Of a stretch of 64,000 nt of DNA, positions 15,139-36,620 are shown one piece after another. The notes under the pieces were generated by a model, which was not told where the DNA came from, did no database searches, and was given only the letters and a program-made list of their open reading frames with translations. The number at the start of each line of letters is the position of its first letter. Position 1 is the first letter of the stretch. Position numbers and translations under genes: made by a program. The stretch covers positions 62,001 through 126,000 of the IMG/VR virus record IMGVR_UViG_3300042922_000850. One strand, given 5' to 3'. The DNA comes from a virus.

Positions 15139-15166
15139 TTTTAGAGGGGCAATTGCCCCTCTAAAC
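15139..15166 (+). terminator. GGGGCAATTGCCCC terminator, copy 1
   Basis: Palindrome TTTAGAGGGGCAATTGCCCC continuing into TCTAAA. The same core is used again at 16186 and 17116. Closes the first long operon group. Confidence 0.75.
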
Positions 15167-15168
15167 TT

Positions 15169-15208
15169 TCCTCCCATTTCTTGTATAAGTAATAAAAGAA
15201 ATGGGAGG
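15169..15208 (+). promoter_or_regulatory. class I promoter motif between inverted repeats
   Basis: GTATAAGTAATAAAA at 15183-15197. CCTCCCATTTCTT upstream (15169-15181) pairs with AAGAAATGGGAGG downstream (about 15196-15208), so the motif sits in a loop and the ribosome site GGGAGG sits in the stem. Confidence 0.6.
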
Positions 15209-15219
15209 ATAAAAATAAA

Positions 15220-15609
15220 ATGGCAATAAGTGATAAGGAAATAGCATTTGTAGCAATGAACGGAATAGCATTAACAGTAATGGGGCTGATAACAGCATAT
15301 ACAACAAAGAGGTTATCTGAAGAAAAGATAAAAAATATAAAGAAAGGGCAAGAAGTTGAGACACTGAAGACAAATCTTAATAAAATGGAAGATTTTATGG
15401 AATGGGAAATTAGTTACATGGAGGATAAAATAAATCTAAATATGATTCAGCTTAGATCAGTGGATATGTATCGATTTGCAGAAAGAGAATTGAAAGAAAT
15501 TAAAGGAGTAACAGAGGTATACGCAAAAGAAGAATTATTAGCAGGAATACGACAGAGAGTGAATACAATTAGAACATTATTAAATAGTGACGAGGAGGCA
15601 ACAAAATAA
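15220..15609 (+). CDS. membrane-anchored coiled-coil protein
   Basis: 129 aa, GGGAGG upstream. A hydrophobic helix at about residues 8-26 is followed by long charged helices rich in Lys, Glu, Ile and Leu. First member of the cassette array and co-transcribed with the next gene (TAATG overlap). Strong preference for A-ending codons, unlike genes left of 15 kb. Confidence 0.65.
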   Translation: MAISDKEIAFVAMNGIALTVMGLITAYTTKRLSEEKIKNIKKGQEVETLKTNLNKMEDFMEWEISYMEDKINLNMIQLRSVDMYRFAERELKEIKGVTEVYAKEELLAGIRQRVNTIRTLLNSDEEATK

Positions 15610-16184
15610 TGAAAATTAGAATGTCAGCAAAGGATTTAGAGAGATTGAGTAATTTAAAAGAGCAGTTAGACAGGGATGTGCATGAATTGGAAATAATAGA
15701 CAATATGGAAGAAAAAGCAGATTTACAAGATAGTATTGAACGCACAAAAAATGTAATCAAAGGAATAAAAGAAGAACCGATAAGAAATATAATTATTATC
15801 GCGGGCGTGGTAAGCGTTGTAATAGGAACAGGTATTATTGTGTCGGAAATATATAAGTTACACAAGAAAATTCGGAAGATAGATACGATGAAGGTGGCAG
15901 AGAACATTTTAGCAGAGAAGGCTAAATTAGAAACAGAACTGGAAGAAGTAATAGAGAATGAAATTGTAAGTGAAGAGATTGAAGAGATAATTGGAAATGA
16001 TGCGGAGGAAGAATTCGCAGTAAGCGAAGTAGTAGCAGAAGATATTAAACAGACGGAGCCAGATGTAAAAGAAGCATTTGAACAGGAGGTTATAAACGCA
16101 GAGGAGCAGAGAAGCAAGAAGTTAGGTGATTTCGGAGAAAGATTAGCTAAAAAGAGAGACAAAATGAAAGCAAAGAAAGCATAG
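15609..16184 (+). CDS. membrane protein with acidic coiled-coil region
   Basis: 191 aa. A basic helical N-terminus, a transmembrane segment at about residues 59-81 (NIIIIAGVVSVVIGTGIIVS) and an acidic Glu-rich region (about 100-160) that ends in a basic tail. Probably forms a complex with the product of the overlapping upstream gene. Function unknown. Confidence 0.65.
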   Translation: MKIRMSAKDLERLSNLKEQLDRDVHELEIIDNMEEKADLQDSIERTKNVIKGIKEEPIRNIIIIAGVVSVVIGTGIIVSEIYKLHKKIRKIDTMKVAENILAEKAKLETELEEVIENEIVSEEIEEIIGNDAEEEFAVSEVVAEDIKQTEPDVKEAFEQEVINAEEQRSKKLGDFGERLAKKRDKMKAKKA

Positions 16185-16185
16185 A

Positions 16186-16211
16186 TTTAGAGGGGCAATT
16201 GCCCCTCTAAA
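16186..16211 (+). terminator. GGGGCAATTGCCCC terminator, copy 2
   Basis: TTTAGAGGGGCAATTGCCCC and then TCTAAA, directly after the stop of the preceding gene. Same core as copies 1 and 3. Confidence 0.75.
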
Positions 16212-16228
16212 CTTCCCTTCCATTTCTT

Positions 16229-16243
16229 GTATAAGAGATAAAA
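16229..16243 (+). promoter_or_regulatory. class I promoter motif
   Basis: GTATAAGAGATAAAA after CATTTCTT, 14 bases before AAAGGAGG of the next gene. Confidence 0.6.
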
Positions 16244-16269
16244 TATAAACAATAAAGGAGGAATTAGTT

Positions 16270-17112
16270 ATGAGAACAAAAATGAGATTAGTAATTTTAG
16301 CAATGGTAATGGTATTAACGGGGTTACAATCAACAACAGCATTTGCTGAGACAGTGATTTACGGAGAGCGTGTTGAAGAAACAATGTATGACATTGGACT
16401 ATGTGTGAGACTTAGTGAGACAGATATTACACTTAAATATCTTAACAGAAGTGGTCGAGAATTAGATCACATGTTGGAAAAAATGTTTGAACCAACAGGA
16501 ATTAGTAACATGAATATTGGCGTATCAGAAGAAATAGATTATTATACATTAAAGCTATGGCAAATGTCATGGGATGTCGAAACATATGACTATTATGACG
16601 GGTATTACACAGTCAATCTTTATCTGGAATACAGGGAAACAGCAGATGAAACAGCATTTGTAATTCAAAAAGTAAAAGAGTTTGTTCGAGCAAATAAGAA
16701 AAAAGTAGCCGGACTTTCAGATGCAGAGAAATACAGATGGATTTATGATCACCTTATTAACAATATGGATTATGATTATACAGAAGAAAATGATTCATGC
16801 TATGAGGCAATAACGTACGGAACAGGTACATGTGTAGCATACTCAGGATTATACTATCTGATTGCAGTAAATATGGGATTACCATGTAAAATAGTGTACG
16901 GCAAAGCAGGAGGCGGAGATCACGCATGGAATTTAGCAAGGTTAGATGGAAAATGGTATTACGTAGATGCAACGTGGGGCGATGATTATAGTGAGGAATA
17001 TTTCATGAGAGCAAAAAAGAATGTAACTACACATAAAATTAACGAAGAAGCAGCATCAAACAGTATTGATGAGAACGGAGTAATTGTATTTGCAAGGGAA
17101 GATTACAGATAA
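16270..17112 (+). CDS. secreted transglutaminase-like protein
   Basis: 280 aa. Residues 1-26 are a typical signal peptide (basic MRTKMR, hydrophobic core, cleavage likely after AFA). The C-terminal half carries a transglutaminase-like (papain-like) fold: catalytic Cys in GTGTCVAYSG (about 180-189), His in GDHAWN (about 217-222) and Asp in WYYVDATWGD (about 230-239). Members cross-link or hydrolyse peptides, often in cell-wall or spore-coat contexts. The N-terminal domain is unrecognised. A phage gene exported under its own promoter suggests action at the cell surface during infection. Confidence 0.85.
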   Translation: MRTKMRLVILAMVMVLTGLQSTTAFAETVIYGERVEETMYDIGLCVRLSETDITLKYLNRSGRELDHMLEKMFEPTGISNMNIGVSEEIDYYTLKLWQMSWDVETYDYYDGYYTVNLYLEYRETADETAFVIQKVKEFVRANKKKVAGLSDAEKYRWIYDHLINNMDYDYTEENDSCYEAITYGTGTCVAYSGLYYLIAVNMGLPCKIVYGKAGGGDHAWNLARLDGKWYYVDATWGDDYSEEYFMRAKKNVTTHKINEEAASNSIDENGVIVFAREDYR

Positions 17113-17115
17113 AAA

Positions 17116-17137
17116 TAGAGGGGCAATTGCCCCTCTA
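17116..17137. terminator. GGGGCAATTGCCCC terminator, copy 3, bidirectional
   Basis: TAGAGGGGCAATTGCCCCTC hairpin between convergent genes. It overlaps the stop codon of the minus-strand gene and can serve both strands. Confidence 0.75.
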
Positions 17138-17932
17138 AACTTCTTTTTTATTGTATCGCTCTTGCATTTTTAAAATCTCTGTTTGTAGCCGGTTAACACT
17201 ATTGGCTATTAAGTCCAACTCCTCAGGACAATTCTTATTAAAATGTTCCTCTAATTTTTCTGGAATGCGTGAAGATGGCCATGTAGAAACACCATACTTT
17301 CTCAACACATCTAAAATAACGTTTAAGAGTTCAATTTGCTCTTTAGCATTGTATAGCTGGTCAATCTGCTTCTGCATCTCTTGCATATCTCTTGCCATCT
17401 TGGTTCCTAGTGATCTGCCGATATATTTTTTCTTACCTATGTCAGCGAGATAGCTTTCTGCAAACTCTTGCTTAGAACTGCAGAAGGGAATTCTATCACT
17501 ATCTAATTTGTTCATGATGATATACATAAGTAAATTCGGATCTAGTTCAATCTTTTTATATACCGCTTTTTTCACTGTGCGAATTGCACCAGTTACCGGA
17601 TCATAATATTTTAAACCAACACTTTCGGGAAGTTCCTCTTTCTTTACCATCCCTTTAGGCACAACAAAGTAAAATTCATGGCAATATGGAACATAACATT
17701 GCCATTTACCATCTTGTAAGAAATCACCTCGACTAACCTTTACTTCGTATATAGTGATATCAGGGTTTGACCAACTCTTAGCAATTGCAATTGCATCAAA
17801 TATCAATAACCCGTTGCCCACAGGGTTATAAGTCGGTCCATTTTTACACTCGGTGGCGAAGAAATCTTTAACATGATACTGTGCCAGCGCCCGCTTAATC
17901 ATCATAGATGTTACTTTTATGTTATCTGCCAT
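17135..17932 (-). CDS. MmcB-like PD-(D/E)XK nuclease-fold protein
   Basis: 265 aa. Residues about 43-98 (DAIAIAKSWSNPDITIYEVKVSRGDF ... KWQCYVPYCHEFYFVVP, given in parts) show the Asp, then E-V-K, then Tyr/Cys pattern of MmcB-type PD-(D/E)XK endonuclease-fold proteins, linked to DNA repair. Residues about 190-260 form a coiled coil. ATG is preceded by GAGGTG. It is the last gene of a four-gene leftward operon with a sigma-A-like promoter, so it is probably expressed early. Confidence 0.75.
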   Translation of the reverse strand: MADNIKVTSMMIKRALAQYHVKDFFATECKNGPTYNPVGNGLLIFDAIAIAKSWSNPDITIYEVKVSRGDFLQDGKWQCYVPYCHEFYFVVPKGMVKKEELPESVGLKYYDPVTGAIRTVKKAVYKKIELDPNLLMYIIMNKLDSDRIPFCSSKQEFAESYLADIGKKKYIGRSLGTKMARDMQEMQKQIDQLYNAKEQIELLNVILDVLRKYGVSTWPSSRIPEKLEEHFNKNCPEELDLIANSVNRLQTEILKMQERYNKKEV

Positions 17933-17941
17933 AATGCACCT

Positions 17942-18388
17942 CTAAAAACGCGTTTTTTGAAATCCGTCATAAGGGGCGCTATAGCAAAACCCGTTCTCTT
18001 TGATCTCAAACTTAACTCCGCATGCCTCACTAATAATCGGAGCAATTTCATCAAACTCTTCTTTACTTAATAGTTCCAGATGACGGCTATAAAACTTCAT
18101 TGTAAGAAACTTTGATGCTCCGCCCATGATCGGCTTATTAGCGTTCCATTCACAGTCTTCATCGAACCCGCCGTGACCAAGTTCAACAATTTCTCCCGCC
18201 TTAGGATTAGGAATACTGACATAGAATTTATGTGGCCAACCATATTTCCAATCAGAACCAGACATTATAGCTTTACCTTCTTTAATTAATTCTGCAAGCT
18301 GTTTAGGATATAAGCTGCCGCAGTAGCCACAACATTCATATCCATCTCTTTCGTAACGCTCCGCTTCTTCACAACTTCTAGATAACAT
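17942..18388 (-). CDS. hypothetical protein with N-terminal CxxC knuckle
   Basis: 148 aa with AAAAGGAG upstream. CCGYCGSLYPKQ near residue 20 looks like half of a rubredoxin-type zinc knuckle followed by a helix. The remainder contains HKFYVSIPNP and GHGGFDEDC. Second-last in the leftward operon. Function unknown. Confidence 0.65.
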   Translation of the reverse strand: MLSRSCEEAERYERDGYECCGYCGSLYPKQLAELIKEGKAIMSGSDWKYGWPHKFYVSIPNPKAGEIVELGHGGFDEDCEWNANKPIMGGASKFLTMKFYSRHLELLSKEEFDEIAPIISEACGVKFEIKENGFCYSAPYDGFQKTRF

Positions 18389-18417
18389 AGTCTTCGCACT
18401 CCTTTTAAATTTTATTA

Positions 18418-18633
18418 TTATTTAACATTAAGATATGGCCCGTTGCAAGGGCAGTTCTTTTCTGGGCCATATAACATTTCGTCAGGATCATCATGACCGA
18501 TATACTCGGGAACACAATCGCAACAACCTCCACCATGGCACTCTTTTGGTCTTTTGTTTTTATATGATTGCCGATAAATACATTTTGCACATACACACCC
18601 ATTTTTATAGCATTCATTCGAGAAGCTAGACAT
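18418..18633 (-). CDS. cysteine-rich hypothetical protein
   Basis: 71 aa with ten cysteines (CYKNGCVCAKC, CHGGGCCDC, CPC), suggesting one or two metal sites or disulfides. AAAGGAGG is 10 bases upstream, inside the end of the previous leftward gene. Confidence 0.65.
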   Translation of the reverse strand: MSSFSNECYKNGCVCAKCIYRQSYKNKRPKECHGGGCCDCVPEYIGHDDPDEMLYGPEKNCPCNGPYLNVK

Positions 18634-18951: not shown

Positions 18952-21900
18952 TTATTCTTCGAAAGACTGTGCGCTCTCTGAATAGATTTCACCACCAAGG
19001 TCGTGGGAAGGCGCTGACATTTCGGTTACATTGCTAATTTCTTTTGGGGTTATTCCACCAAGTGCACCACACTCCGGGCAATAGCCTAAGTTATCTGGTT
19101 GACCTTTGTAACTGCACACTTCACAATTAATGTCTTTTAATCCGGTTTTAGGATCAATTGTGGGTTCCTCAGGAACAACATTACTTTCTTTCTTTGCCTC
19201 TTCCTTTGTCGGAACATTCATCTCTGCCTCTTTAAACAGTTCATCAAGTTCTTCGGAAGCTAACTTCGAGACTTTTACATTTTTGACCGCATTTTTTATC
19301 GCTTTGACTCCGGCTCCTGCAAGTGCTCCAATTCCTACACCTGCAGCTCCTCCTGCGATAGCGTTGCTTGCAGCTTCACTACCATAATCAGATGGTAGTG
19401 CGGTTGGATTAACTTCTTTTGCTTGGTCAACCGACTTTTGATAAGCTGCTCCACTACCCATAAGACCGCCAATAGCTGCACCACTAAGTGCGCTAGCTTC
19501 TTTAGCGAGTTCATCGAGTTCTTCAGATGCATGCTTAACCGCTTTTGATTTTGCCACATCTTTTACAAGTGCCGGTAAAGATGTAACGATATTGCCAACT
19601 GCTCCCGCACTCGCACCCAATAAACCACCTTTTACCGCTCCTTTAAGAACAGCTTTGGGGTTCTCTTCACTTTCTTTTTTTTTACCTTCTATACCACCAA
19701 GAACTGTTCCTACTCCGGCACTAAATGGAATGAGGCCGGCACCTGCTTCTTTCTCCGCAGACTCATCGGTTGCTTCAAAAGATTGTTTTTCCACATGATT
19801 TTTAAATTCTTCTTGCATTTTTGCCTTAGCTGCTTCAAATTTCTGAGTCCCTTGCTCTGATGCTTTCTGAACCACCTTAGCGCCAAGTGCACTACTAGCC
19901 AAATTCGCGCCTAGCCCAATTCCGGCTCCAGCTAACGCACCTTTAGCAACGCCTTTTAAAGTTTTGTCACGATCGTTTTCTTTGGAAGTTTTAAGACCAC
20001 CAATTGCCCCGCCAACAATTGCACCAGGGAGAACAAACCCTGCTTCTTTCTCCATAATCTCCGTCATATCATATTTTGCCGAACAAACATCGTATGCGAC
20101 TTTATGAAGGTGATCGATTTGTTCAATAGCGGCTTGAATATAATTAGGGCTAACTACTTGGTTACGGTTTTTATACTGCATTACCTTTAATTGCATAAGG
20201 TCACAAGCAACTCTCTCTAATATATCACGATTTTCTATAATATCCTTAGATACTTCATAAATTCTCGGATAATTATGAGTTTCATTAGCTGTTGATGCAA
20301 CCTTTTCTGCGAAGAAGGATGATAAGCTCATAATCTTTGCTACTTCCAAAGCTGATTGCGATTCTCTTTCTAAAGCAATCTTCTCAAACACAGACGATAA
20401 TGTCTTACCCTCAGATGCAACGTTACCTAATTGTGCTGCGATGTCTTTAACTGCACTCGGTGCTCCGCTAAGTCCATCCGATAACATGCTTGCGATTACA
20501 GAAGTTGCAAGAACACCTGCAAGTTCTTTGGGTTTTACCATTGACTTTACGGTATTTTGTATCTTTTTACCTGCAAGAGATTGAACTCTTGCGCCTTGAA
20601 GTGCTTCGATATTCGGATTAGCAGGTAAAGCATAGGTCATTTGAGGATTGTTATTTACTTTGAAGATGATCTCTTGAAACTCCGCCTGATTAAATCCAAG
20701 GAGTTTAAGAACTAACTTTAAATCGTCTTTGGAAATTCTTGTATATGTCTTTACAAATCGTTTCAATATAGCTTTTTTTGTATCAACGTAATTAATTTCC
20801 ACATCGTATGCGCCGAGTTGCTTATCTCTGCATACGATTTTAATTTTATTCTTTTCTACTGCGGCAACCTTTTCAAAAGTATCTTCGTAGCTTTCTACGT
20901 AAGCAAGTTTATCGAGATCTTCTTTGTTCTGAAGATAATCTTTAATAATGCCCTTGATTAAGATTACTCTGGTTTCCGGATCCGTTGCAAGGACAAGGTT
21001 GGTTTCTGTCCTTGCGGGCCCCTGCGTTGCATAAGGGTTTTTATCAACTTTATGATAATTGATACAGATAGAACCTTTTGACATTAGGTTAGATAGCTTA
21101 AATTCGTCCATTGCAAGTTCTTTGGATTTCTTCGCAATGAAATCACCATAGGGCATTTCAAAGAACTTTGCCCCATCAAGAGTGCAAAGATTAACTCTGA
21201 TATTAACATTTAAGATATTCTGAGTTTCACTTGTTGTTAATAAGTTTGCGATTTCTGAGTTATCATAAATGGGCGATAACTCATAGCTTTTTGTTGAGAT
21301 ATCGTTTTTGCGGTCACCGCTACCATAAGTTCTTTCGTTTATCCAATTTACTTTTGAGGGGAATAAAGCTTTGTCTCCATCGAATGCCATGAAGATATCG
21401 CCTTCTTGCAATGTGGACAGGCTCTCCATCTTTATGGAAAATTTTGTCTCTGGCGCTTTTAAGCAAAGGAAACGTTCCGAGTTGCTGAGAATTTTCACAC
21501 GAGCATCGGCGGTGATGACTAATTTTACCTTCTTCGGAGCTTTGTCAGCAAAGGACATAAAATTATCGACAACAATGCCGTTAGTCATGGAAATCTCGTT
21601 ACCATTTTTCTCAGGAAAAGCAATGACTGTGCCGTTTGGTAATTTAATAGCATCGTCATATTGTAAGTTCTTCGCCTTTTCAAATAATTTAAGTTTCTCT
21701 TGGTCATCTGGGACGTTAATCTCAGCCGCCATTTTCTCCATTTCAAGTTTCACTTCTTCTGAAGCTTTTCTCTCAAACTCTTGATTAAGAACTTTCAGGT
21801 CAGCTTCAGTGAATTCTTTAATTGTTGCAGCCTTTTCAAGGAGTTCATCAATCTTCTCTGCAGCATAGATATAATTTTGGCCAGATGGACTACTATGCCC

Positions 21901-22461
21901 AACCGCTTGATCTCTAATTTGCAGAACGTTTCCAAGAAATCCTGTACTTGTAGCTGGGTTGTTCCTGGTATCAAGACCAACATAAGGGTCATCTGTATTA
22001 TTTTGGCGGTCTTTCTCCTGTAATTGCTGTATAGCGTAAACGACCTTTTTCATGTTTTCTCTAGAGTAAGGAACTCTGGTTCCTTCGGATTGAATAACAT
22101 CAAAAGGGATAAGTTCTCCATCAATAACCATAAACGGGAGTTCAATTACTTTGCCAAAATATTTGATTGCAACTACACCATTCGCATCTGAAACATAATC
22201 AGAATGTGCTTTATCCATCTCTTCGGGGTTTAGTTGTATAGCCACATTCGGTGTGCTTGGGAAGAAGGCTAATTCATTAAGCACGTACTTTCTAATAAAA
22301 GTCTCTATATTATCTGCTGTCGGCTGATAAATATCTATCCCTGCATATTTCTTAATAGCAAGATCCTCTTTGCTTAAAGAATAGTCTCTTGCTTCTTTCT
22401 CAAAGCCAAAAGACAAAGATGCTCCAAAGGCATTCGATATATTTCTCAATCTCTTATCCAT
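18952..22461 (-). CDS. large protein with glycine-zipper segments and C-terminal zinc ribbon
   Basis: 1169 aa from the ATG preceded by AGAGGTG; a GTG four codons upstream overlaps that site. Residues 1 to about 640 look globular. About residues 860-1080 contain at least six Gly/Ala-rich zipper-like hydrophobic segments (GAIVGGAIGG, AGAGIGLGAN, GVGTVLGG, GGLLGASAG, GAAIGGLMGSG, GVGIGALAGAG) separated by charged linkers with KEA or EKEAG. The C-terminus has CEVC ... CPEC. The pattern suggests a membrane-inserting or injected virion protein, but no homologue is recognised. It has its own extended -10 promoter. Confidence 0.85.
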   Translation of the reverse strand: MDKRLRNISNAFGASLSFGFEKEARDYSLSKEDLAIKKYAGIDIYQPTADNIETFIRKYVLNELAFFPSTPNVAIQLNPEEMDKAHSDYVSDANGVVAIKYFGKVIELPFMVIDGELIPFDVIQSEGTRVPYSRENMKKVVYAIQQLQEKDRQNNTDDPYVGLDTRNNPATSTGFLGNVLQIRDQAVGHSSPSGQNYIYAAEKIDELLEKAATIKEFTEADLKVLNQEFERKASEEVKLEMEKMAAEINVPDDQEKLKLFEKAKNLQYDDAIKLPNGTVIAFPEKNGNEISMTNGIVVDNFMSFADKAPKKVKLVITADARVKILSNSERFLCLKAPETKFSIKMESLSTLQEGDIFMAFDGDKALFPSKVNWINERTYGSGDRKNDISTKSYELSPIYDNSEIANLLTTSETQNILNVNIRVNLCTLDGAKFFEMPYGDFIAKKSKELAMDEFKLSNLMSKGSICINYHKVDKNPYATQGPARTETNLVLATDPETRVILIKGIIKDYLQNKEDLDKLAYVESYEDTFEKVAAVEKNKIKIVCRDKQLGAYDVEINYVDTKKAILKRFVKTYTRISKDDLKLVLKLLGFNQAEFQEIIFKVNNNPQMTYALPANPNIEALQGARVQSLAGKKIQNTVKSMVKPKELAGVLATSVIASMLSDGLSGAPSAVKDIAAQLGNVASEGKTLSSVFEKIALERESQSALEVAKIMSLSSFFAEKVASTANETHNYPRIYEVSKDIIENRDILERVACDLMQLKVMQYKNRNQVVSPNYIQAAIEQIDHLHKVAYDVCSAKYDMTEIMEKEAGFVLPGAIVGGAIGGLKTSKENDRDKTLKGVAKGALAGAGIGLGANLASSALGAKVVQKASEQGTQKFEAAKAKMQEEFKNHVEKQSFEATDESAEKEAGAGLIPFSAGVGTVLGGIEGKKKESEENPKAVLKGAVKGGLLGASAGAVGNIVTSLPALVKDVAKSKAVKHASEELDELAKEASALSGAAIGGLMGSGAAYQKSVDQAKEVNPTALPSDYGSEAASNAIAGGAAGVGIGALAGAGVKAIKNAVKNVKVSKLASEELDELFKEAEMNVPTKEEAKKESNVVPEEPTIDPKTGLKDINCEVCSYKGQPDNLGYCPECGALGGITPKEISNVTEMSAPSHDLGGEIYSESAQSFEE

Positions 22462-23148: not shown

Positions 23149-23163
23149 GTATAAGAGATAAAA
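23149..23163 (+). promoter_or_regulatory. class I promoter motif
   Basis: GTATAAGAGATAAAA after CTTTTCCA. It is the first promoter to the right of the GGACA repeat field and precedes ACAGGAGG. Confidence 0.6.
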
Positions 23164-23186
23164 CAAAACACAGGAGGAATAAAATT

Positions 23187-23381: not shown

Positions 23382-23395
23382 ACACAAGGATAGAG

Positions 23396-28404: not shown

Positions 28405-28426
28405 CAAACAATAGGAGGAAGATAAA

Positions 28427-28624
28427 ATGAAAATCGGAACAGTAGTAGTAATCAGTACATTAACAGCAGCATTAGGATTTACAATAGGCATATTTGTAGG
28501 CGCAGTAGCAGGTGCAATAGCAGTATCAGAAATAATAACAGATAAGGAAGATGAAGACAGCAACGAAAGTGAAAGCAGTAATGAAAGTGAAAGCAGTAAA
28601 GACGTCTTCTCATTCCTTGTATAA
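28427..28624 (+). CDS. membrane peptide with acidic Ser-rich tail
   Basis: 65 aa, AGGAGG upstream. Membrane helix over about residues 4-33, with glycine spacing that suggests helix packing, followed by an acidic region with the repeat NESESSNESESS. The stop codon TAA lies inside the next class I motif, with no terminator between, so the two cassettes are fused end to start. Confidence 0.6.
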   Translation: MKIGTVVVISTLTAALGFTIGIFVGAVAGAIAVSEIITDKEDEDSNESESSNESESSKDVFSFLV

Positions 28625-28633
28625 GTAATAAAA
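28619..28633 (+). promoter_or_regulatory. class I promoter motif overlapping upstream stop
   Basis: GTATAAGTAATAAAA after CATTCCTT; its GTATAA supplies the last sense codon and stop of the preceding gene. Confidence 0.6.
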
Positions 28634-28655
28634 TAAAGAGAAAGGAGAGAGTATT

Positions 28656-28856
28656 ATGCAAAGCAGTATTACAATAGACGGCGGAGTTAATTTAGAAGCA
28701 CAAGAGATTAAAATAAGTAATATAGAAGGAAAGGCTGTCATTGAAATTGGAGCAATAAAAACAATTTTAGACGAAGGGGAATCTATTACAATCAAGTGTC
28801 AACAGGGGTTGCAATCATTAGAAATAGGGGATTTTGTCGTAGCATCAAAACAGTGA
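28656..28856 (+). CDS. hypothetical protein
   Basis: 66 aa, AAAGGAGAG upstream. Soluble and beta-rich (ITIDGGVNLEAQEIKISNIEGKA in two strands). Not recognised. Single-gene cassette. Confidence 0.65.
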   Translation: MQSSITIDGGVNLEAQEIKISNIEGKAVIEIGAIKTILDEGESITIKCQQGLQSLEIGDFVVASKQ

Positions 28857-28860
28857 TAGT

Positions 28861-28884
28861 GAAGAGGGGTTAAACCCCCTCTTC
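28861..28884 (+). terminator. cassette terminator
   Basis: GAAGAGGGGTTAAACCCCCTCTTC hairpin with flanking T-rich sequence. Confidence 0.7.
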
Positions 28885-28891: not shown

Positions 28892-28906
28892 GTATAAGTA
28901 ATAAAA
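28892..28906 (+). promoter_or_regulatory. class I promoter motif
   Basis: GTATAAGTAATAAAA after CTTTCCTC. Confidence 0.6.
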
Positions 28907-28932
28907 TAAAGAACGCAGAGGAGGAAGAATAT

Positions 28933-29136
28933 ATGGATTTAACAGCAGTGATAGCAAGAGTAAGAGCAGATGGTCACACTATAAGAGAGACAGAAAGTAC
29001 ATATCAGTTTTATGCAAATGACGAGTATATTAAATCGTTAGAAGTAAGAGGATTATTAGTGAAGGGAGATTGTCATAAGATAAGGAATAGCACATTTAGG
29101 CTATACAAAGAAAAATGGTACAAAAGGGCAAAGTAA
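28933..29136 (+). CDS. hypothetical protein
   Basis: 67 aa, GAGGAGG upstream. Soluble, basic C-terminus (RLYKEKWYKRAK). The last codons overlap a terminator stem (AAAAGGGCA ... TGCCCTTTT). Not recognised. Confidence 0.65.
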   Translation: MDLTAVIARVRADGHTIRETESTYQFYANDEYIKSLEVRGLLVKGDCHKIRNSTFRLYKEKWYKRAK

Positions 29137-29178
29137 TTGCCCTTTTGTCTCTTCTCTCATAAAATCCTTTATCTTATT

Positions 29179-31622: not shown

Positions 31623-31637
31623 GTATAAGAAAGAAAA
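31623..31637 (+). promoter_or_regulatory. class I promoter motif for the tRNA-like gene
   Basis: GTATAAGAAAGAAAA ends two bases before the tRNA acceptor stem. With no room for a leader, it constrains the transcription start to within or just after the motif. Confidence 0.65.
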
Positions 31638-31639
31638 GG

Positions 31640-31711
31640 AAAGCAGTAGCTCAGATGGGAGAGCACCAGTATTAATACTGAGGGTGGCAGGTTCGATACC
31701 TGTCTGCTTTT
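31640..31711 (+). tRNA. tRNA-like gene, anticodon arm irregular (UAA by position)
   Basis: A 72-nt cloverleaf: acceptor arms AAAGCAG / CTGCTTT pair fully; D stem GCTC/GAGC with an 8-nt loop; T arm GCAGG-TTCGATA-CCTGT with one G-T pair. No CCA is encoded. The 17-nt anticodon arm CCAGTATTAATACTGAG pairs poorly in the canonical register, but CAGT/ACTG can pair around a 6-nt loop. Canonical numbering puts TAA at 34-36 (reading UUA, Leu), yet there is no long variable arm as Leu tRNAs have. So it is a tRNA or tRNA mimic of uncertain identity. Confidence 0.7.
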
Positions 31712-31717
31712 GTTTTC

Positions 31718-31745: not shown

Positions 31746-31760
31746 GTATAAGGAATAAAA
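31746..31760 (+). promoter_or_regulatory. class I promoter motif
   Basis: GTATAAGGAATAAAA after TATTTCTA. Confidence 0.6.
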
Positions 31761-31783
31761 CAAAACAAAGGAGGTTCATAAGT

Positions 31784-31996
31784 ATGAACGAGGAAGTATA
31801 CGAGACAACAGAAGAGGTAACAGAGGCAGTAGCAGGTATGGATGACAATCGAATAAAGATTGCAGTAGTAGCAGTAGCGGGGGTTGTATTATTAGCAGGA
31901 GCAGGTTTTACATGGCTGAAGTTAAGAAAGAAAAAGAAATTGGCAGTATCAGATGCAGACATCGATTTAGATGAAGTTGCAGCAGACGAACAATAA
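31784..31996 (+). CDS. small single-pass membrane protein
   Basis: 70 aa, AAGGAGG upstream. Acidic N-terminus (residues 1-23), membrane helix at about 24-46, basic KLRKKKKL and then an acidic tail. The charge bias suggests the N-terminus is outside and the tail in the cytoplasm. Single-gene cassette. Confidence 0.65.
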   Translation: MNEEVYETTEEVTEAVAGMDDNRIKIAVVAVAGVVLLAGAGFTWLKLRKKKKLAVSDADIDLDEVAADEQ

Positions 31997-32000
31997 GGTT

Positions 32001-32032
32001 TAAGAACCGGGGGCATATGCCCTTGGTTCTTT
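32001..32032 (+). terminator. cassette terminator
   Basis: AAGAACCGGGGGCATATGCC then CTTGGTTCTTTT; imperfect stem with G-T pairs. Confidence 0.65.
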
Positions 32033-32056: not shown

Positions 32057-32071
32057 GTATAAGAAATAAAA
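32057..32071 (+). promoter_or_regulatory. class I promoter motif
   Basis: GTATAAGAAATAAAA after ATTTTATT. Confidence 0.6.
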
Positions 32072-32093
32072 CAAATGAAAGGAGAATTAAAGT

Positions 32094-32279
32094 ATGGACG
32101 CAACAACAGATAAGAAAGTAGGAGAGGTATTAGTACAGACAATTGTATTAACTTCAAAAGAAGGAACATTAAAAGGATTTATCGCAGGATGTATTGTAAC
32201 AGGGATAGCAATAGGTGGTATTTATATTGCAAACAAACATGGAATAGCAATTAAAAGCTTCATCAAAGAAAAGATTTAA
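32094..32279 (+). CDS. small single-pass membrane protein
   Basis: 61 aa, AAAGGAG upstream. Soluble N-terminus, one Gly-rich membrane helix (about residues 28-46), basic amphipathic end. A-ending codons. Single-gene cassette. Confidence 0.6.
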   Translation: MDATTDKKVGEVLVQTIVLTSKEGTLKGFIAGCIVTGIAIGGIYIANKHGIAIKSFIKEKI

Positions 32280-32281
32280 AT

Positions 32282-32307
32282 ATATAGGAGGCGCTTGCCT
32301 CCTATAT
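32282..32307 (+). terminator. cassette terminator
   Basis: ATATAGGAGGCGCTTGCCTC and then CTATAT as a compact stem, followed by TCTTTCTTTT. Confidence 0.7.
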
Positions 32308-32333: not shown

Positions 32334-32348
32334 GTATAAGAAATAAAA
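32334..32348 (+). promoter_or_regulatory. class I promoter motif
   Basis: GTATAAGAAATAAAA after ATTTTCTT. Confidence 0.6.
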
Positions 32349-32375
32349 GAATAATAGATAATGGAGGATACGAGA

Positions 32376-32552
32376 ATGAGAAAGTTGATAAGAAGAAAAA
32401 TCAAAGAGACAATGGTAAGCGTAGGATTTAAGTTAGTAACTACAGTTATGGCACTTGTAATGACGGCAAAAGAGTTGTGGAATATGAGAGAAACCAGGAA
32501 AGACATTAATAAAATGAAAAGAATGTGGAGCGAATGGGCAAACGAAAAATAA
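32376..32552 (+). CDS. small basic amphipathic membrane-associated protein
   Basis: 58 aa from ATG 32376; GGAGG is 9 bases upstream and an ATG at 32361 overlaps it. Very basic N-terminus (RKLIRRKIKE), hydrophobic stretch at about residues 13-31, then a charged helix rich in Arg, Lys and Trp. Single-gene cassette. Confidence 0.6.
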   Translation: MRKLIRRKIKETMVSVGFKLVTTVMALVMTAKELWNMRETRKDINKMKRMWSEWANEK

Positions 32553-32557
32553 AGAAA

Positions 32558-32580
32558 AGAGGAGGCGTTGCCTCCTCTAA
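32558..32580. terminator. terminator between convergent genes
   Basis: AGAGGAGGCGTTGCCTCCTCT hairpin, followed by a T run interrupted by AAGTCA. Usable from both strands. Confidence 0.65.
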
Positions 32581-32581: not shown

Positions 32582-33547
32582 TCATTTTTTTATTCCAAAT
32601 AAGCTACTAACATAATCGGATACATTCTTGCTAGCGACTATAGGGGCTCTTTTTTTGAAATTTTCTTCTGCTACTTGCTTTTCCATTTGGTCAGCAAGTT
32701 TTTTATCATAAACACCGCTATCACCATATTTTAAACCATAAGTTTCATAAGTTTTACCCTTCTGAAACTTCTTAGCGCCAGGATACATTTTTAAATATTT
32801 AGGGTCTGCAGTTTCTCCTGAAGTGGCCCGAAGTGCTTTATAGAAATTTCTTGTGTGCAAAGGAGCAACTGCAACATTAGCAGATTCCCTTGCAATTACT
32901 TTGGGAGATACGTGAGCACTATTGCCGATTTGCTCTGGCCGAAAATCATGTTTAATCATGCCATTCTTCTTGTTTTTTAATTTCTTCTCAACCTGTTGAG
33001 TAGCTCTGTTTTCATCTACTTCATGTCTAAGACTAATCGCCTTATTCCATTTATCAAAATCTTTTTTTACCGGTTTACTCATGCTAAAAACATGTTCTTT
33101 CTGATAAACATTATCTGCAAACTCTTGGTCAATTTTTGATTTTGATGGTGCATAAGCTACCCTGCTCTTCGACACAGATCCGGCACCGTCTTTTACTCCG
33201 GATATACTCCGAGAAGCGGCTTCAAAATTTACCTTCAGCGCTTTTTCAGCAGGATTAATACCCTTGCTTTTAAATTTTTGTTCGGCTACATATTCTGCAT
33301 TAGGCTTATGGATATCCTTAAACAGTGCTTTTCCATAAGTTAGTGGATTGGATGTTGTCTTAACCTTATAATCTTTAGCGATTGCTTTCGTTCCCTTTTC
33401 CAATCCCTTTAGTTCCCTGTTGTAATTTAGGATATTCTTTTTTACTAACTCTCTACGAGCAAGATCAGATAAAGTACCGAGTTCTCGTTTCCATGCTCTA
33501 CTGGCTTCTTTATAAATTAGTTCTTCATATGCTGCGATTTTATCCAT
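32582..33547 (-). CDS. hypothetical protein with IYKEA N-terminal motif, possible virion protein
   Basis: 321 aa, AAAGGAG upstream. The N-terminus MDKIAAYEELIYKEAS matches the product of the minus-strand gene starting at 26809, and both are long, basic, Lys-rich and poor in hydrophobic residues. The rest is unrecognised. The isolated minus-strand position with its own promoter parallels the 1169-aa protein, which also has KEA motifs, so the three could be expressed together late in infection. Confidence 0.75.
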   Translation of the reverse strand: MDKIAAYEELIYKEASRAWKRELGTLSDLARRELVKKNILNYNRELKGLEKGTKAIAKDYKVKTTSNPLTYGKALFKDIHKPNAEYVAEQKFKSKGINPAEKALKVNFEAASRSISGVKDGAGSVSKSRVAYAPSKSKIDQEFADNVYQKEHVFSMSKPVKKDFDKWNKAISLRHEVDENRATQQVEKKLKNKKNGMIKHDFRPEQIGNSAHVSPKVIARESANVAVAPLHTRNFYKALRATSGETADPKYLKMYPGAKKFQKGKTYETYGLKYGDSGVYDKKLADQMEKQVAEENFKKRAPIVASKNVSDYVSSLFGIKK

Positions 33548-33591: not shown

Positions 33592-33667
33592 ACCTCGCCC
33601 ACAACGCACTTCACTGCATTTCACCGTACCCTTTATTCCATGCTCTTTTCTAGTATAAGAAATAAAA
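33592..33667 (+). promoter_or_regulatory. ACCACG-like element and class I promoter motif
   Basis: ACCTCGCCCACAACGCAC (33592-33609) lies 61 bp before GTATAAGAAATAAAA (33653-33667), the same distance as at 23432 and 23773. TTTATTCCATGCTCTTTTCT fills the spacer. Confidence 0.6.
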
Positions 33668-33689
33668 CAATACATAGGAGGAAAATAGC

Positions 33690-34004
33690 ATGACAGAGGT
33701 AATGAAAGAAGCAATGAAAGAACTTGAAGTTTTAAGAAAGCAAGAAGAAAGAGTGAAGACAATAATTTTTAATGAACTGGCTGATAAAGATGGGCCAATG
33801 TTAGAAGAAGGGTTTACAATTCACGCAAAGAAATTTAGCAGTGTAGAAGTGGCAAAGCTTTTAGGAGTACACGTACATACATTACGCAGATGGATACAAT
33901 CTGGTAAATTAGTGGCAGAAACAGGAATGGGACCGCATGGAATACAAATACATGAATGGGCGTTAAAAGAGTTTATTAGAAAAAACAGAGAGGTTTTTAT
34001 TTAA
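33690..34004 (+). CDS. MerR/excisionase-type helix-turn-helix protein
   Basis: 104 aa, AGGAGG upstream. Residues about 49-95 (KKFSSVEVAKLLGVHVHTLRRW, then IQSGKLVAETGMGPHGIQIHEWALKEFI) follow the winged helix-turn-helix of the MerR/excisionase class. The N-terminal half is a charged helix, possibly for dimerisation. It is the only obvious DNA-binding protein inside the cassette array and is thus a candidate regulator of it. Confidence 0.8.
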   Translation: MTEVMKEAMKELEVLRKQEERVKTIIFNELADKDGPMLEEGFTIHAKKFSSVEVAKLLGVHVHTLRRWIQSGKLVAETGMGPHGIQIHEWALKEFIRKNREVFI

Positions 34005-34024
34005 AGAGGCAACCGCCTCTTTAA
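34003..34024 (+). terminator. cassette terminator
   Basis: TAAAGAGGCAACCGCCTCTTTA hairpin overlapping the stop. Confidence 0.75.
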
Positions 34025-34040
34025 AATTTGTTGTTTTATT

Positions 34041-34055
34041 GTATAAGAAATAAAA
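34041..34055 (+). promoter_or_regulatory. class I promoter motif
   Basis: GTATAAGAAATAAAA. TTGTTGTTTTATT upstream is nearly complementary to AATAAAACAACAA across the motif. Confidence 0.6.
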
Positions 34056-34108
34056 CAACAAATAATAGTAACAGAAAGTGGGGAATAATAAATAGGAGGA
34101 TACGTATT

Positions 34109-34216
34109 ATGGGAGTAATTAAAAGCGTAAACAAGCAAACGATTGTATTGGTAGTAATTGGATCAGCAATAGGATTTATTACAACTTTGGCAGCGGAAGC
34201 ATCCAGAAGAAAATAG
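34109..34216 (+). CDS. very short membrane peptide
   Basis: 35 aa, AGGAGG upstream. Membrane helix at about residues 10-28 between basic ends. Its own class I motif and terminator support it despite the size. Confidence 0.55.
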   Translation: MGVIKSVNKQTIVLVVIGSAIGFITTLAAEASRRK

Positions 34217-34227
34217 GATAAGAGGAA

Positions 34228-34252
34228 TTAGGGGAGAGTCAGCTCCCCTAAA
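34228..34252 (+). terminator. cassette terminator
   Basis: TTAGGGGAG and CTCCCCTAA with loop AGTCAG, followed by ACCTTCGTCTTTTT. Confidence 0.7.
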
Positions 34253-34302: not shown

Positions 34303-34317
34303 GTATAAGAAAGAAAA
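34303..34317 (+). promoter_or_regulatory. class I promoter motif
   Basis: GTATAAGAAAGAAAA after GGTTTCTA. Confidence 0.6.
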
Positions 34318-34346
34318 GAAGTATATAAGAAAGAAGGAGAGATAGT

Positions 34347-34697
34347 ATGAAAATGCAGAATGTAATTTTAGGAACAGTTGTAGTAGGGATAGCAATTATT
34401 GTAACAACAGCGGTAATAACGACAAAAGTTATAAAAAAGAAGGCAGGTGATAAGCAAACACCAGAACATCTGGAGGAGAGTGGTGAAGTATCTTTTTATA
34501 AAGAAAAGTTTAATATCGATACAGAGGCGGCAGAAGCAATCGCATCGACTATGGATATCGTCATGGCAGAATTAGAGGAAGCGGATAGACCGGCATCGAG
34601 AGAGAATTTAATCGAAGCAATACAAGATGAATTTAATATAGGGGTTAACCCGGAAGACATTGTGGATGCATACATAGCATATTGCAACATGGATTAG
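34347..34697 (+). CDS. membrane-anchored protein with acidic helical domain
   Basis: 116 aa, AAGGAG upstream. Membrane helix at about residues 5-26, then a soluble acidic helical domain (about 50-116). Function unknown. Confidence 0.65.
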   Translation: MKMQNVILGTVVVGIAIIVTTAVITTKVIKKKAGDKQTPEHLEESGEVSFYKEKFNIDTEAAEAIASTMDIVMAELEEADRPASRENLIEAIQDEFNIGVNPEDIVDAYIAYCNMD

Positions 34698-34701
34698 AGG
34701 A

Positions 34702-34730
34702 TGAGGGACATTAAGTGTCCCTCAAATTTT
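34702..34730 (+). terminator. cassette terminator
   Basis: TGAGGGACA / TGTCCCTCA hairpin (loop TTAAG) followed by AAATTTTC. Confidence 0.75.
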
Positions 34731-34742: not shown

Positions 34743-34866
34743 GTATAAGTAATAAAAGAAAAAGGTGAATAGAAATAAATATATAAGATAGGCGCCTATT
34801 CACACCGCAGTTTGACAAAATGCGGTATATAATGTGCAGACAGCAATAGCAGACAAATATTTGTCT
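34743..34866 (+). promoter_or_regulatory. class I promoter motif with a structured leader
   Basis: GTATAAGTAATAAAA (34743-34757) is followed by about 135 bases of leader before the next ATG. Three hairpins are visible: GTGAATAG (34765) with CTATTCAC (34796), enclosing AAATATATAAG; CCGCA with TGCGG (34805-34825); and AGACAAATATTTGTCT (34851-34866). A leader this long is exceptional here and could be a regulatory RNA. I do not recognise a riboswitch class. Confidence 0.5.
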
Positions 34867-34892
34867 GACTTTTATTTTTAGGGGGTAATTTT

Positions 34893-35288
34893 ATGAAAAA
34901 AATGAAGACATTTATTCAAAATGAAAGGCTTAATTTGGGTGTAGGTATAGATACCGGTGAATGGCAGTTAACACCATCCTTTAGTATCTATTTTGAGAGA
35001 GATTGGTACAATAGCCGGCTAATCCAGTTTTCATGGCTCTGCTTCTTTATCGCCGGTGTAGTGTATAGTAAAGAGCATTTGCATGCACAGGCGATAAAAG
35101 ATATTGAAAAAACCAACTACCTTTTTACTAACAAAAAGGTAGTTGTAATGGCTAAGATTGCCACATATACATGGGAAGTCTTGCCGGTAATTGGATATGC
35201 CCAATTACCGGATAATCCCGAACACGGAACTATATTTGAAGTAACATGGTTATGTTTCACGTTCGGTGCATCTTTTTATAAACAATAA
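34893..35288 (+). CDS. hypothetical protein
   Basis: 131 aa, GGGGG upstream. Beta-rich, with two related segments: WYNSRLIQFSWLCFFIAGVVYSK (about 43-65) and GTIFEVTWLCFTFGASFYKQ at the C-terminus. Both contain a W-L-C-F core, suggesting an internal duplication. The coding sequence carries 13-bp (35114-35145) and 11-bp (35184-35211) perfect inverted repeats. Codon use is ordinary. Confidence 0.6.
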   Translation: MKKMKTFIQNERLNLGVGIDTGEWQLTPSFSIYFERDWYNSRLIQFSWLCFFIAGVVYSKEHLHAQAIKDIEKTNYLFTNKKVVVMAKIATYTWEVLPVIGYAQLPDNPEHGTIFEVTWLCFTFGASFYKQ

Positions 35289-35413
35289 AGAGATAAAAGA
35301 GCGGGGGATTTTGCCCTAACTGGTTCACTTTTGAGGTACAAAATCAAAAATAAATATTTTAAAAGGTTAAATTAAAATTCAGGGCATTAATAAGTAGTGC
35401 AGATTGGAGAAAA

Positions 35414-35572
35414 ATGAACGTTGAAAGAATGGGAAAAAACTTTGAATTATGTATCAGAGACGAATCCAATCTTATAGTTGCATGGCAAGCGGGGATGTCA
35501 GAAGAAGATATTAATGATATGTTAAAAAGACATTTTGGATGGCGAAGAAGTCATGCATATGTAGAGAGCTAA
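35414..35572 (+). CDS. short hypothetical protein
   Basis: 52 aa, TTGGAG upstream. Soluble, with the pattern VAWQAGMSEEDINDMLKRHFGW. No class I motif precedes it in the 125-base gap from the previous gene, so it is probably on that transcript. Confidence 0.5.
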   Translation: MNVERMGKNFELCIRDESNLIVAWQAGMSEEDINDMLKRHFGWRRSHAYVES

Positions 35573-35631
35573 ACTGAAAAGTAGCGGTGGGTGAAAATAT
35601 ATTCTTCGCTCCTGAGTTTTTCCTTTTTCTG

Positions 35632-35646
35632 GTATAAGAAACAAAA
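35632..35646 (+). promoter_or_regulatory. class I promoter motif
   Basis: GTATAAGAAACAAAA after TTTTTCTG. Confidence 0.6.
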
Positions 35647-35667
35647 GGATTAAAGGAGGATAATATT

Positions 35668-35811
35668 ATGAACGAAGCAAGTATGGGGTTAGACCAAGAA
35701 CAACGAATGAAAGAAGTTGAACGAAGAGTTCAGAACGAAATAAGTCACGGAGAGATTTTAACTGAGAAGGAATTTAACAGCATTATAGAGGATGTAATGA
35801 AAACAAATTGA
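35668..35811 (+). CDS. short hypothetical protein
   Basis: 47 aa, AAAGGAGG upstream. Highly charged, probably two helices; the pattern EILTEKEFNSIIEDVMK resembles the SHOCT/short C-terminal helical pairs common in phage peptides. Single-gene cassette. Confidence 0.55.
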   Translation: MNEASMGLDQEQRMKEVERRVQNEISHGEILTEKEFNSIIEDVMKTN

Positions 35812-35812
35812 G

Positions 35813-35832
35813 AGAGGAGCTTATGCTCCTTT
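35813..35832 (+). terminator. cassette terminator
   Basis: AGAGGAGCTTATGCTCCTTT with a T-rich tail. Confidence 0.7.
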
Positions 35833-35852
35833 TTAATTTCTTCTTTTTTTTG

Positions 35853-35891
35853 GTATAAGAAAGAAAATAAGAGAATGTAATGTAATTCTCT
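35853..35891 (+). promoter_or_regulatory. class I promoter motif plus 5' hairpin
   Basis: GTATAAGAAAGAAAA, then TAAGAGAAT / ATTCTCTTA as a 9-bp hairpin. Confidence 0.6.
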
Positions 35892-35964
35892 TAAGTTTGT
35901 TTTCATTTGTAACATAGGAAGTAAGACAAAAGAAAATATTAAATAATTCAAGGAGGATTCACAA

Positions 35965-36492
35965 ATGCAGATTTTAACAAAGGGAACAATGATTGCAACG
36001 GTTATCGTGTCAGGGGCAACAGCAGTAACATCTATAGTAGTATCCGCAAGAGAGAAAAAGAAATCAGGTAAACTTCTAAGTGAAATGTGTGATGCATATG
36101 AGGAGTTGTCAAAGAAAAATGCCGATATGAGCAAAACTATTGAGGCGAACAACGCTTTTATGTCTAGGGCGGAAAACGAACTTACAGAAAGAGCTAAGAA
36201 CATCCGTGAACTATCCAGAGATAAAGTTTCTCTCGAAGGAAAACTTACTATTGAGAAAAACATATCGAAAACGTCATTTAACAATGGATTTTCAGCAGGT
36301 GACGAAGCAGGATATGCTCGTGGTTATGAAACTGGATTTAAAGAAGGCAAGAAAGCCGGAGTAAAAGAAAGTAAGAAGATTGATAAGGAAACTACCGATA
36401 GCACAGCTGCTCCTGGTAAAGAACGCAAAAAGAGAGAAAGTAAGAGCACAGAGAGTAAGAATGTGGCTGGCGAAGAAACGTTGGGCAAATAA
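35965..36492 (+). CDS. membrane-anchored coiled-coil protein with GxxxG repeats
   Basis: 175 aa, AAGGAGG upstream. Membrane helix at about residues 6-27, coiled coil at about 30-100, then GFSAGDEAGYARGYETGFKEG (written here in full only to 20 residues: GFSAGDEAGYARGYETGFKE), a glycine-every-four motif as in 25032 and 27486, and a basic disordered tail. Function unknown. Last unit of the cassette array. Confidence 0.65.
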   Translation: MQILTKGTMIATVIVSGATAVTSIVVSAREKKKSGKLLSEMCDAYEELSKKNADMSKTIEANNAFMSRAENELTERAKNIRELSRDKVSLEGKLTIEKNISKTSFNNGFSAGDEAGYARGYETGFKEGKKAGVKESKKIDKETTDSTAAPGKERKKRESKSTESKNVAGEETLGK

Positions 36493-36504
36493 GGATAATG
36501 GGCT

Positions 36505-36530
36505 ATCAGGAGGCTACATAGCCTCCTGAT
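36505..36530 (+). terminator. cassette terminator
   Basis: ATCAGGAGGCT and AGCCTCCTGAT with loop ACAT, followed by ATTTTGC. Confidence 0.75.
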
Positions 36531-36576
36531 ATTTTGCTATGTCAATTTAGCAAAATGCTTTTATTTTTTACTTCTC

Positions 36577-36620
36577 GTATAAGAAAGAAAAGGGGGATAT
36601 TTTCTTCTTTTCTTTCTTGC
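36577..36620 (+). promoter_or_regulatory. class I promoter motif plus 5' hairpin
   Basis: GTATAAGAAAGAAAA; AAGAAAGAAAAG pairs with CTTTTCTTTCTT at about 36609-36620. It starts the long operon group that follows the cassette array; the leader before the first GTG is about 100 bases. Confidence 0.55.

What the first reader, a model, noticed from the sequence alone, without database searches (positions are those of the whole stretch)
15139..36620. Array of about 30 mini-transcription units encoding tiny proteins
From 15 to 36.6 kb the rule is: hairpin terminator, class I motif, GGAGG, one 35-190-aa gene, terminator. Most products are one membrane helix plus a charged tail or a short amphipathic helix. 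Terminators are recycled (the GGGGCAATTGCCCC core three times; GGGAGCGAAAGCTCCC three times), as are promoter regions. It looks like a modular, duplicating store of host-takeover or membrane-acting peptides with individually tunable expression.
Basis: partly seen in the sequence, partly recalled or inferred. Interest (0 to 1): 0.75.

Follow-up and report, generated by a model that had tools for sequence, protein, structure and literature searches.

The report
Phage array of one-gene transcription units
A large phage that carries its own single-chain RNA polymerase keeps about 29 tiny transcription units, mostly one small gene each with its own promoter and terminator, in a region whose layout its relatives share but whose genes they do not, which looks like a swap-in store of proteins made early in infection.

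Summary
Between 15.1 and 36.6 kb, 29 copies of GTATAAGNRATAAAA, all on the + strand, lead 22 single-gene protein units, one tRNA unit, four two-gene units, one five-gene operon and one operon leaving the region. Most end in hairpin terminators. Sigma-70-like sites are at background. The region is not a pure array: six minus-strand genes interrupt it. About half the products, not most, have a membrane helix.

The host genome is a 166.8-kb myophage encoding a 2301-aa fused beta-beta' RNA polymerase beside the portal gene. Relatives with this polymerase carry the same one-stranded motif, and one at 36% polymerase identity carries a diverged form (TTATAAGTAAAGTG). None of the array's + genes has a BLAST relative in four relatives, although the backbone is colinear. 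Unit genes share A-ending codons unlike the rest of the genome, while the capsid gene prefers T-ending ones.

Best reading: an early-gene bank transcribed by the phage polymerase, probably virion-borne, in which cassettes turn over at repeated terminator-promoter spacers. It resembles T4 PeSLs and the SPO1 takeover module but differs in promoters, polymerase and codon regime. Early timing, packaging and host takeover are inferred. "Tunable expression" is unsupported.

The parts
15184..16208 (+). unit 1: motif 15184, genes 15220-15609 (129 aa, 1 TM) and 15609-16184 (191 aa, 1 TM), GGGGCAATTGCCCC terminator
16230..17137 (+). unit 2: motif 16230, secreted transglutaminase-like protein 16270-17112 (Pfam 1e-12), terminator 17116-17137
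23150..23430 (+). unit 3: motif, 64-aa TM protein 23187-23381, hairpin
23494..23764 (+). unit 4: motif, 74-aa amphipathic protein 23528-23752 (paralogue of 27802 and 29349), terminator with stop codon in its loop
23835..24187 (+). unit 5: motif, 97/102-aa protein ending at 24164, GGGAGCGAAAGCTCCC terminator
24273..24540 (+). unit 6: motif, 72-aa protein 24317-24535, terminator with stop codon in its loop
24629..24970 (+). unit 7: motif, 95-aa protein 24665-24952, terminator
24992..25565 (+). unit 8: motif, 169-aa TM protein 25032-25541, GGGAGCGAAAGCTCCC terminator
25586..25873 (+). unit 9: motif, 73-aa protein 25625-25846, GGGAGCGAAAGCTCCC terminator
26882..27154 (+). unit 10: motif, 51-aa TM protein 26954-27109, hairpin
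27179..27419 (+). unit 11: motif, 65/70-aa TM protein ending at 27413, terminator with stop codon in its loop
27446..27674 (+). unit 12: motif, 48-aa TM protein 27486-27632, hairpin
27743..28290 (+). unit 13: motif, genes 27802-28050 (82 aa) and 28043-28234 (63 aa), hairpin
28391..28624 (+). unit 14: motif, 65-aa protein with 1 TM and acidic tail 28427-28624; next promoter overlaps its end, no terminator
28620..28883 (+). unit 15: motif, 66-aa protein 28656-28856, terminator
28893..29148 (+). unit 16: motif, 67-aa protein 28933-29136, terminator overlapping the stop codon
29180..29561 (+). unit 17: motif, genes 29218-29346 (42 aa, TM) and 29349-29549 (66 aa), hairpin at the stop codon
29574..31597 (+). 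unit 18: motif leading a five-gene operon including radical-SAM/SPASM protein 30214-31104
31624..31712 (+). unit 19: motif followed directly by tRNA-Ile(AAU) 31639-31712
31747..32032 (+). unit 20: motif, 70-aa protein with 1 TM and acidic tail 31784-31996, hairpin
32058..32307 (+). unit 21: motif, 61-aa TM protein 32094-32279, terminator
32335..32578 (+). unit 22: motif, 58/63-aa TM protein ending at 32552, bidirectional terminator
33654..34025 (+). unit 23: motif, 104-aa HTH_17/MerR-like protein 33690-34004, terminator
34042..34251 (+). unit 24: motif flanked by a 15-bp inverted repeat, 35-aa TM protein 34109-34216, hairpin
34304..34724 (+). unit 25: motif, 116-aa TM protein 34347-34697, terminator
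34744..35572 (+). unit 26: motif, genes 34893-35288 (131 aa, paralogue of 28043) and 35414-35572 (52 aa)
35633..35834 (+). unit 27: motif, 47-aa protein 35668-35811, terminator
35854..36531 (+). unit 28: motif, 175-aa TM protein 35965-36492, terminator
36578..36591 (+). motif 29, leading the downstream operon from 36699
18952..22461 (-). conserved 1169-aa minus-strand gene at the array; its homologues in G5 and G11 also sit beside mini-unit arrays
25892..26809 (-). interrupting minus-strand gene
32582..33547 (-). interrupting minus-strand gene, homologous to G000:50395-51258
17135..18633 (-). three interrupting minus-strand genes (MmcB-like and two unknown)

Best explanation
The array is a phage early-gene bank. 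(a) Each unit is one promoter (TTTTCTnGTATAAGNAATAAAA), a short leader with a strong ribosome-binding site, usually one small gene, and its own hairpin terminator: shown in sequence. (b) The promoter is most likely read by the phage's own 2301-aa fused beta-beta' RNA polymerase: inferred. (c) That polymerase is encoded beside the portal gene in the minus-strand structural module, so it is probably made late, packaged and injected, which would make the units early genes: inferred. (d) Because each unit is transcriptionally closed, genes can be gained, lost or replaced without polar effects, and the repeated terminator-promoter spacers offer homology for exchange. Relatives keep the layout with non-homologous contents: shown; that spacers mediate exchange is inferred. 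(e) The products, about half of them with a membrane helix and several with charged or acidic tails, most plausibly modify the host envelope, exclude superinfecting phage or block defence: guess.
For: Architecture. Sigma-70-like sites at background, so host-type promoters do not explain the units. Polymerase: Rpb2/Rpb1 Pfam domains in one 2301-aa frame; conserved NADFDGD motif; portal is the upstream neighbour, with the same neighbours in G1, G7 and G11. Motif and polymerase travel together: one-stranded motif excess in G0 41/1, G1 28/0, G7 19/1, G5 6/0, G11 25/2, reversed-pattern controls 0-5 per strand; also G17; G20 (polymerase 36% identical) has the diverged TTATAAGNAAAG, 13 + and 0 -; more distant polymerase carriers lack the G0 form. 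Minus-strand genes carry TATAAT-like boxes instead. Turnover: none of the called array + genes has a BLAST relative at E 1e-3 in G1, G5, G7 or G11, while 43 of 67 minus-strand and 21 of 35 large + genes do. Same slot: G5 and G11 units lie beside the 1169-aa-gene homologue. Unit genes are real and form one class: true frame best in 35 of 35; A-ending fourfold codons 61-67% against 36-40% in other + genes. Known virion polymerases of jumbo phages use a roughly 10-nt AT-rich motif centred near -10 of early genes (PMC7598289).
Against: No transcript, start-site, proteome or timing data. Packaging is inferred from gene position only. A phage sigma factor steering host RNA polymerase to the motif would give the same sequence signature. 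No near-identical relative was found, so recent cassette exchange is not shown; the three G11-like records are the same DNA. G1 (46% GC) shows neither the codon bias nor a significant helix excess. Nearly all products have no informative family match, so function is open.
Confidence: 0.6

Rival explanations
1. The motif is a promoter for host RNA polymerase redirected by a phage-encoded sigma or appropriator, used in the middle or late phase (compare T4 late promoters, TATAAATA; from memory), and the array is a middle/late gene set.
For: TATAAG resembles a -10 box and there is no -35 element; T4 late promoters have the same simple form (own knowledge). Several conserved proteins beside the polymerase gene have no assigned family.
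Against: The structural genes, the obvious late set, lack the motif entirely (43 forward, 0 reverse) and carry TATAAT-like boxes instead. The motif diverges with the phage polymerase.
Confidence: 0.25
2. The array is an ordinary hypervariable early region in which small genes accumulate, without any exchange role for the spacers; spacer similarity reflects selection on promoter and terminator alone.
For: Spacer similarity concentrates on promoter and terminator; gene paralogues are few; no close strains are available to show exchange.
Against: Neighbouring spacers are alike beyond the functional parts (93% over 58 nt, 77% over 132 nt) while the genes between them are unrelated; G11 shows the same (90% over 89 nt).
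Confidence: 0.3
3. T4-style translational silencing: upstream sequence pairs with the ribosome-binding site in read-through RNA, so only RNA started at the unit's own promoter is translated.
For: At 15184, 24629, 25586 and 32335 the site is almost fully paired in read-through RNA (0.00-0.02 unpaired) and free in RNA from the unit's own promoter.
Against: Across 22 G0 sites real upstream sequence is no better than shuffled or swapped upstream sequence (0.35 against 0.37 and 0.32; p = 0.32 and 0.51). The effect is compositional.
Confidence: 0.08
4. Small units are annotation noise in non-coding DNA.
For: Genes are short, mostly without homologues.
Against: Correct spacing to ribosome-binding sites, true reading frame best in 35 of 35 and strong codon bias, in-frame paralogues.
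Confidence: 0.02

Closest known systems
PeSLs (promoter early stem-loops) of T4-like phages (Arbiol 2010; Comeau 2014; as described in PMC4503421)
   Same: Repeated intergenic cassette of a terminator hairpin plus an early-type promoter between small orphan genes in a hypervariable region, credited with gene shuffling.
   Different: Promoter is not sigma-70-like and is tied to a phage with its own fused RNA polymerase; different backbone families; almost every small gene has its own unit; exchange between close strains not shown here.
SPO1 host-takeover module, 26 genes (PMC6873191)
   Same: Dense cluster of small genes with strong promoters and ribosome-binding sites.
   Different: No homology or terminal-redundancy evidence; helix count 5 of 24 in SPO1 genes 37-60 and fourfold A only 0.37 against 0.32 in structural genes, whereas here it is 0.61-0.67 against 0.33-0.40.
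Virion RNA polymerase early-promoter systems of jumbo phages phiKZ and AR9 (PMC7598289)
   Same: Phage-encoded cellular-type polymerase and an about 10-nt AT-rich motif ahead of presumed early genes.
   Different: Polymerase here is one fused chain of about 2300 aa, not four or five polypeptides; genome under 200 kb; packaging not shown.

Membership tests
PeSL arrays of T4-like phages | Composite spacer of terminator stem-loop plus promoter, repeated between small genes | tested here: met
PeSL arrays of T4-like phages | Promoter is a host sigma-70 early promoter | tested here: not met
   sigma-70-like sites at background, 69 against 69.4; motif lacks a -35 box
PeSL arrays of T4-like phages | Hypervariable region rich in orphan small genes | tested here: met
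PeSL arrays of T4-like phages | Spacer-bounded cassette exchange between close relatives | tested here: inconclusive
   no close strain that differs; spacer duplication seen
PeSL arrays of T4-like phages | Belongs to a T4-like genome | not tested
   no tree was made; best PHROG families are phrog_675 terminase and phrog_405 DNA polymerase
SPO1-type host-takeover module | Cluster of small genes with own promoters and strong ribosome-binding sites | tested here: met
SPO1-type host-takeover module | Early expression and inhibition of host processes | not testable with these tools
   needs expression and toxicity data
Virion-RNAP early promoter class | Conserved AT-rich motif of about 10 nt ahead of one gene class | tested here: met
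Virion-RNAP early promoter class | Cellular-type multisubunit-like polymerase encoded by the phage | tested here: met
Virion-RNAP early promoter class | Polymerase present in the virion; motif at -10 of mapped early starts | not testable with these tools
   needs virion proteomics and start-site mapping

The most novel reading that the evidence does not exclude
A dedicated early expression compartment: a virion-carried single-chain beta-beta' polymerase, a promoter that coevolves with it, and a separate A-ending codon regime with weakly structured mRNA together define a slot into which unrelated small membrane-anchored effectors are recruited, so that layout and codon style are inherited while the genes are not.
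Probability: 0.35. Interest if true: 0.78.

Novelty: new variant of a known kind. Interest (0 to 1): 0.62.

Why it matters
Phage early regions are a main source of unknown small host-acting proteins. Here a promoter signature finds them in a family of large phages: the motif-led genes can be listed, cloned and tested as a set. The link between a fused phage RNA polymerase and a diverging promoter gives a tractable case of polymerase-promoter coevolution, and the separate codon regime of the units raises a testable question about translation or mRNA stability early in infection.

Tried and rejected
Read-through hairpins hiding the ribosome-binding site: only compositional. Host-type promoters: background level. 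Strain-level cassette turnover: the only close set of records (G11, three metagenomes) is 100% identical DNA in the compared stretch, and promoter-pattern scans returned, as multi-hit contigs, just G1 and the G11 set. Relatives in bacterial genomes: none by the 1169-aa gene. Homologues of single array proteins in deposited phages or IMG/VR: none for the five tried. Family scans of 32 array proteins: only isolated matches, best 4e-7 to a PHROG of unknown function, two weak spanin-like ones. Codon bias as plain high-expression bias: rejected as a general rule, because the major capsid gene shows the opposite, T-ending preference. Codon bias as regional mutation bias: rejected, minus-strand genes inside the array have ordinary composition. 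DNA-level search against deposited phages: no match.
Full report
What was checked. The window is bases 62001-126000 of a 166,758-base IMG/VR virus record. The consensus is TTTTCTnGTATAAGNAATAAAA followed by an A-rich leader. Twenty-nine sites lie at 15184-36578.

Anatomy. Reading together, the 29 sites lead 22 single-gene protein units, one tRNA-Ile unit, four two-gene units, one five-gene operon and one operon that leaves the region: 35 protein genes. ATG mostly follows the motif by 34-43 nt. Terminator-like hairpins are 46 against 12.7 +/- 3.8 expected, and sigma-70-like sites are at background. Strong hairpins follow 20 of 29 array gene ends, against 13 of 110 other + junctions; at about five units the hairpin overlaps the stop codon, which sits in the loop (GGCGTAAGCC and similar). 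Six minus-strand genes interrupt the array, one of 1169 aa.

Coding reality. The true frame scores best in 35 of 35 array genes. The promoter-led genes use A in about two thirds of fourfold-degenerate codons, against 36-40% in other + genes and 33% in minus genes (p = 5e-8 against other small + genes). The 22 genes with the highest value in the genome all belong to motif-led units (unit assignment). The capsid gene prefers T instead. Minus genes within the array are ordinary, so this is not a regional mutation effect. Unit mRNAs are less structured than other small genes (-0.126 against -0.187 kcal/mol per nt, p = 1e-6). The bias recurs in G11 (0.85 against about 0.5) and more weakly in G7 and G17, points the same way in G5 and G20 on few genes, and is absent in the GC-richer G1. 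Its cause is unresolved: it is strong in four-codon boxes, Leu, Arg and Ile but not in Lys AAA/AAG in G0, so plain A-enrichment does not fit well.

Products. Eighteen of 35 have a hydrophobic segment of membrane-helix strength, so 'most' overstates it. Pooled over six genomes, 41 of 88 motif-led small genes have one against 49 of 348 other small + genes (p = 4e-10). Recurrent form: short basic N-terminus, one helix rich in small residues, charged or acidic tail. Two in-array paralogue families exist: 23528/27802/29349 and 28043/34893. Family libraries give little.

Genome and relatives. The genome encodes a contractile-tail phage and a 2301-aa fused beta-beta' RNA polymerase with NADFDGD intact, directly downstream of the portal gene on the minus strand. 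Relatives with fused polymerase: G7 (52% identical), G11 (47%), G17 (44%), G1 (43%), G5 (41%), G20 (36%) and others; 18 of 21 records found by terminase have matches, where complete in one open frame of about 2030-2330 aa. G0 and G11 are colinear in their backbone but start at different points of a common order, as expected of near-complete permuted records.

Promoter and polymerase travel together. The motif is one-stranded in G0 41/1, G1 28/0, G7 19/1, G5 6/0 and G11 25/2. G11 prefers GTATAAGAYATTAAA; G20 uses TTATAAGTAAAGTG, 13 + and 0 -; records with more distant polymerases lack the G0 form. Minus-strand genes carry TATAAT-like boxes. I infer, not show, that the fused polymerase reads the motif.

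Turnover. None of the called array + genes has a BLAST relative in G1, G5, G7 or G11, whereas 43 of 67 minus-strand genes do. The slot persists: in G5 and G11 mini-units with unrelated small genes sit beside the homologue of the 1169-aa gene. Spacers are repeated (93% over 58 nt, 88% over 57 nt, 77% over 132 nt). No close strain is available, so the exchange step is not observed.

Mechanism. Shown: closed units, shared promoter, strand restriction, codon class, orphan contents in a conserved slot. Inferred: polymerase-promoter pairing, late synthesis and packaging of the polymerase, hence early expression. Guess: membrane-level host modification, superinfection exclusion or anti-defence. A T4-style hairpin that would silence read-through RNA was tested and is not specific beyond base composition.

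Comparison. PeSLs of T4-like phages are the closest described kind; the promoter type differs. SPO1's takeover module is similar in layout, but its codon usage is ordinary and its helix fraction lower. Jumbo-phage virion polymerases provide the precedent for an AT-rich early motif. I therefore call this a new variant of a known kind.

Noticed in passing
record G000:25094-31999 (outside window), locus L010:5094-11999: 2301-aa fused beta-beta' RNA polymerase beside the portal gene; long single frames with matching polymerase domains occur in many IMG/VR records found by terminase.
   Followed up: partly
window 590, 4207, 9339, 46375, 56690; G000:55841: Promoters of operons, unlike mini-units, are followed by a long inverted repeat that begins within or just after the motif, e.g. 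TAAGTAATAAAAGGAAGATATCGATATCTTCCTTTTATTACTTA; possibly a 5' mRNA-protecting stem-loop.
   Followed up: partly
window 23433, 23774, 26806, 26859, 27685, 28235: Element CCACGCCCACCACGT, all + strand (six matches against 0.09 expected), in array spacers in nearly all cases; role unknown.
   Followed up: partly
window 23738-23764, 24527-24540, 27404-27419, 29120-29148, 29541-29561: Stop codon lies in the loop of the terminator hairpin, a compact reuse of sequence.
   Followed up: no
window 31639-31712: tRNA-Ile with anticodon AAU, unusual for bacteria, as its own motif-led unit.
   Followed up: no
window 29629-31597: Five-gene operon with a radical-SAM protein (weak SPASM match) and small neighbours; could be a peptide-modifying set.
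   Followed up: no
window 22500-23150: About 690 nt without called genes between the 1169-aa gene and the array, with repeated TGGACTTTGACA/GGACAT words.
   Followed up: no
window 25892-26809, 32582-33547 and G000:50395-51258: Minus-strand genes sharing an N-terminal segment; two of them (32582 and G000:50395) are clear paralogues.
   Followed up: no
window 18952-22461: 1169-aa protein conserved in all four relatives compared, without any family match; marks the array slot.
   Followed up: partly
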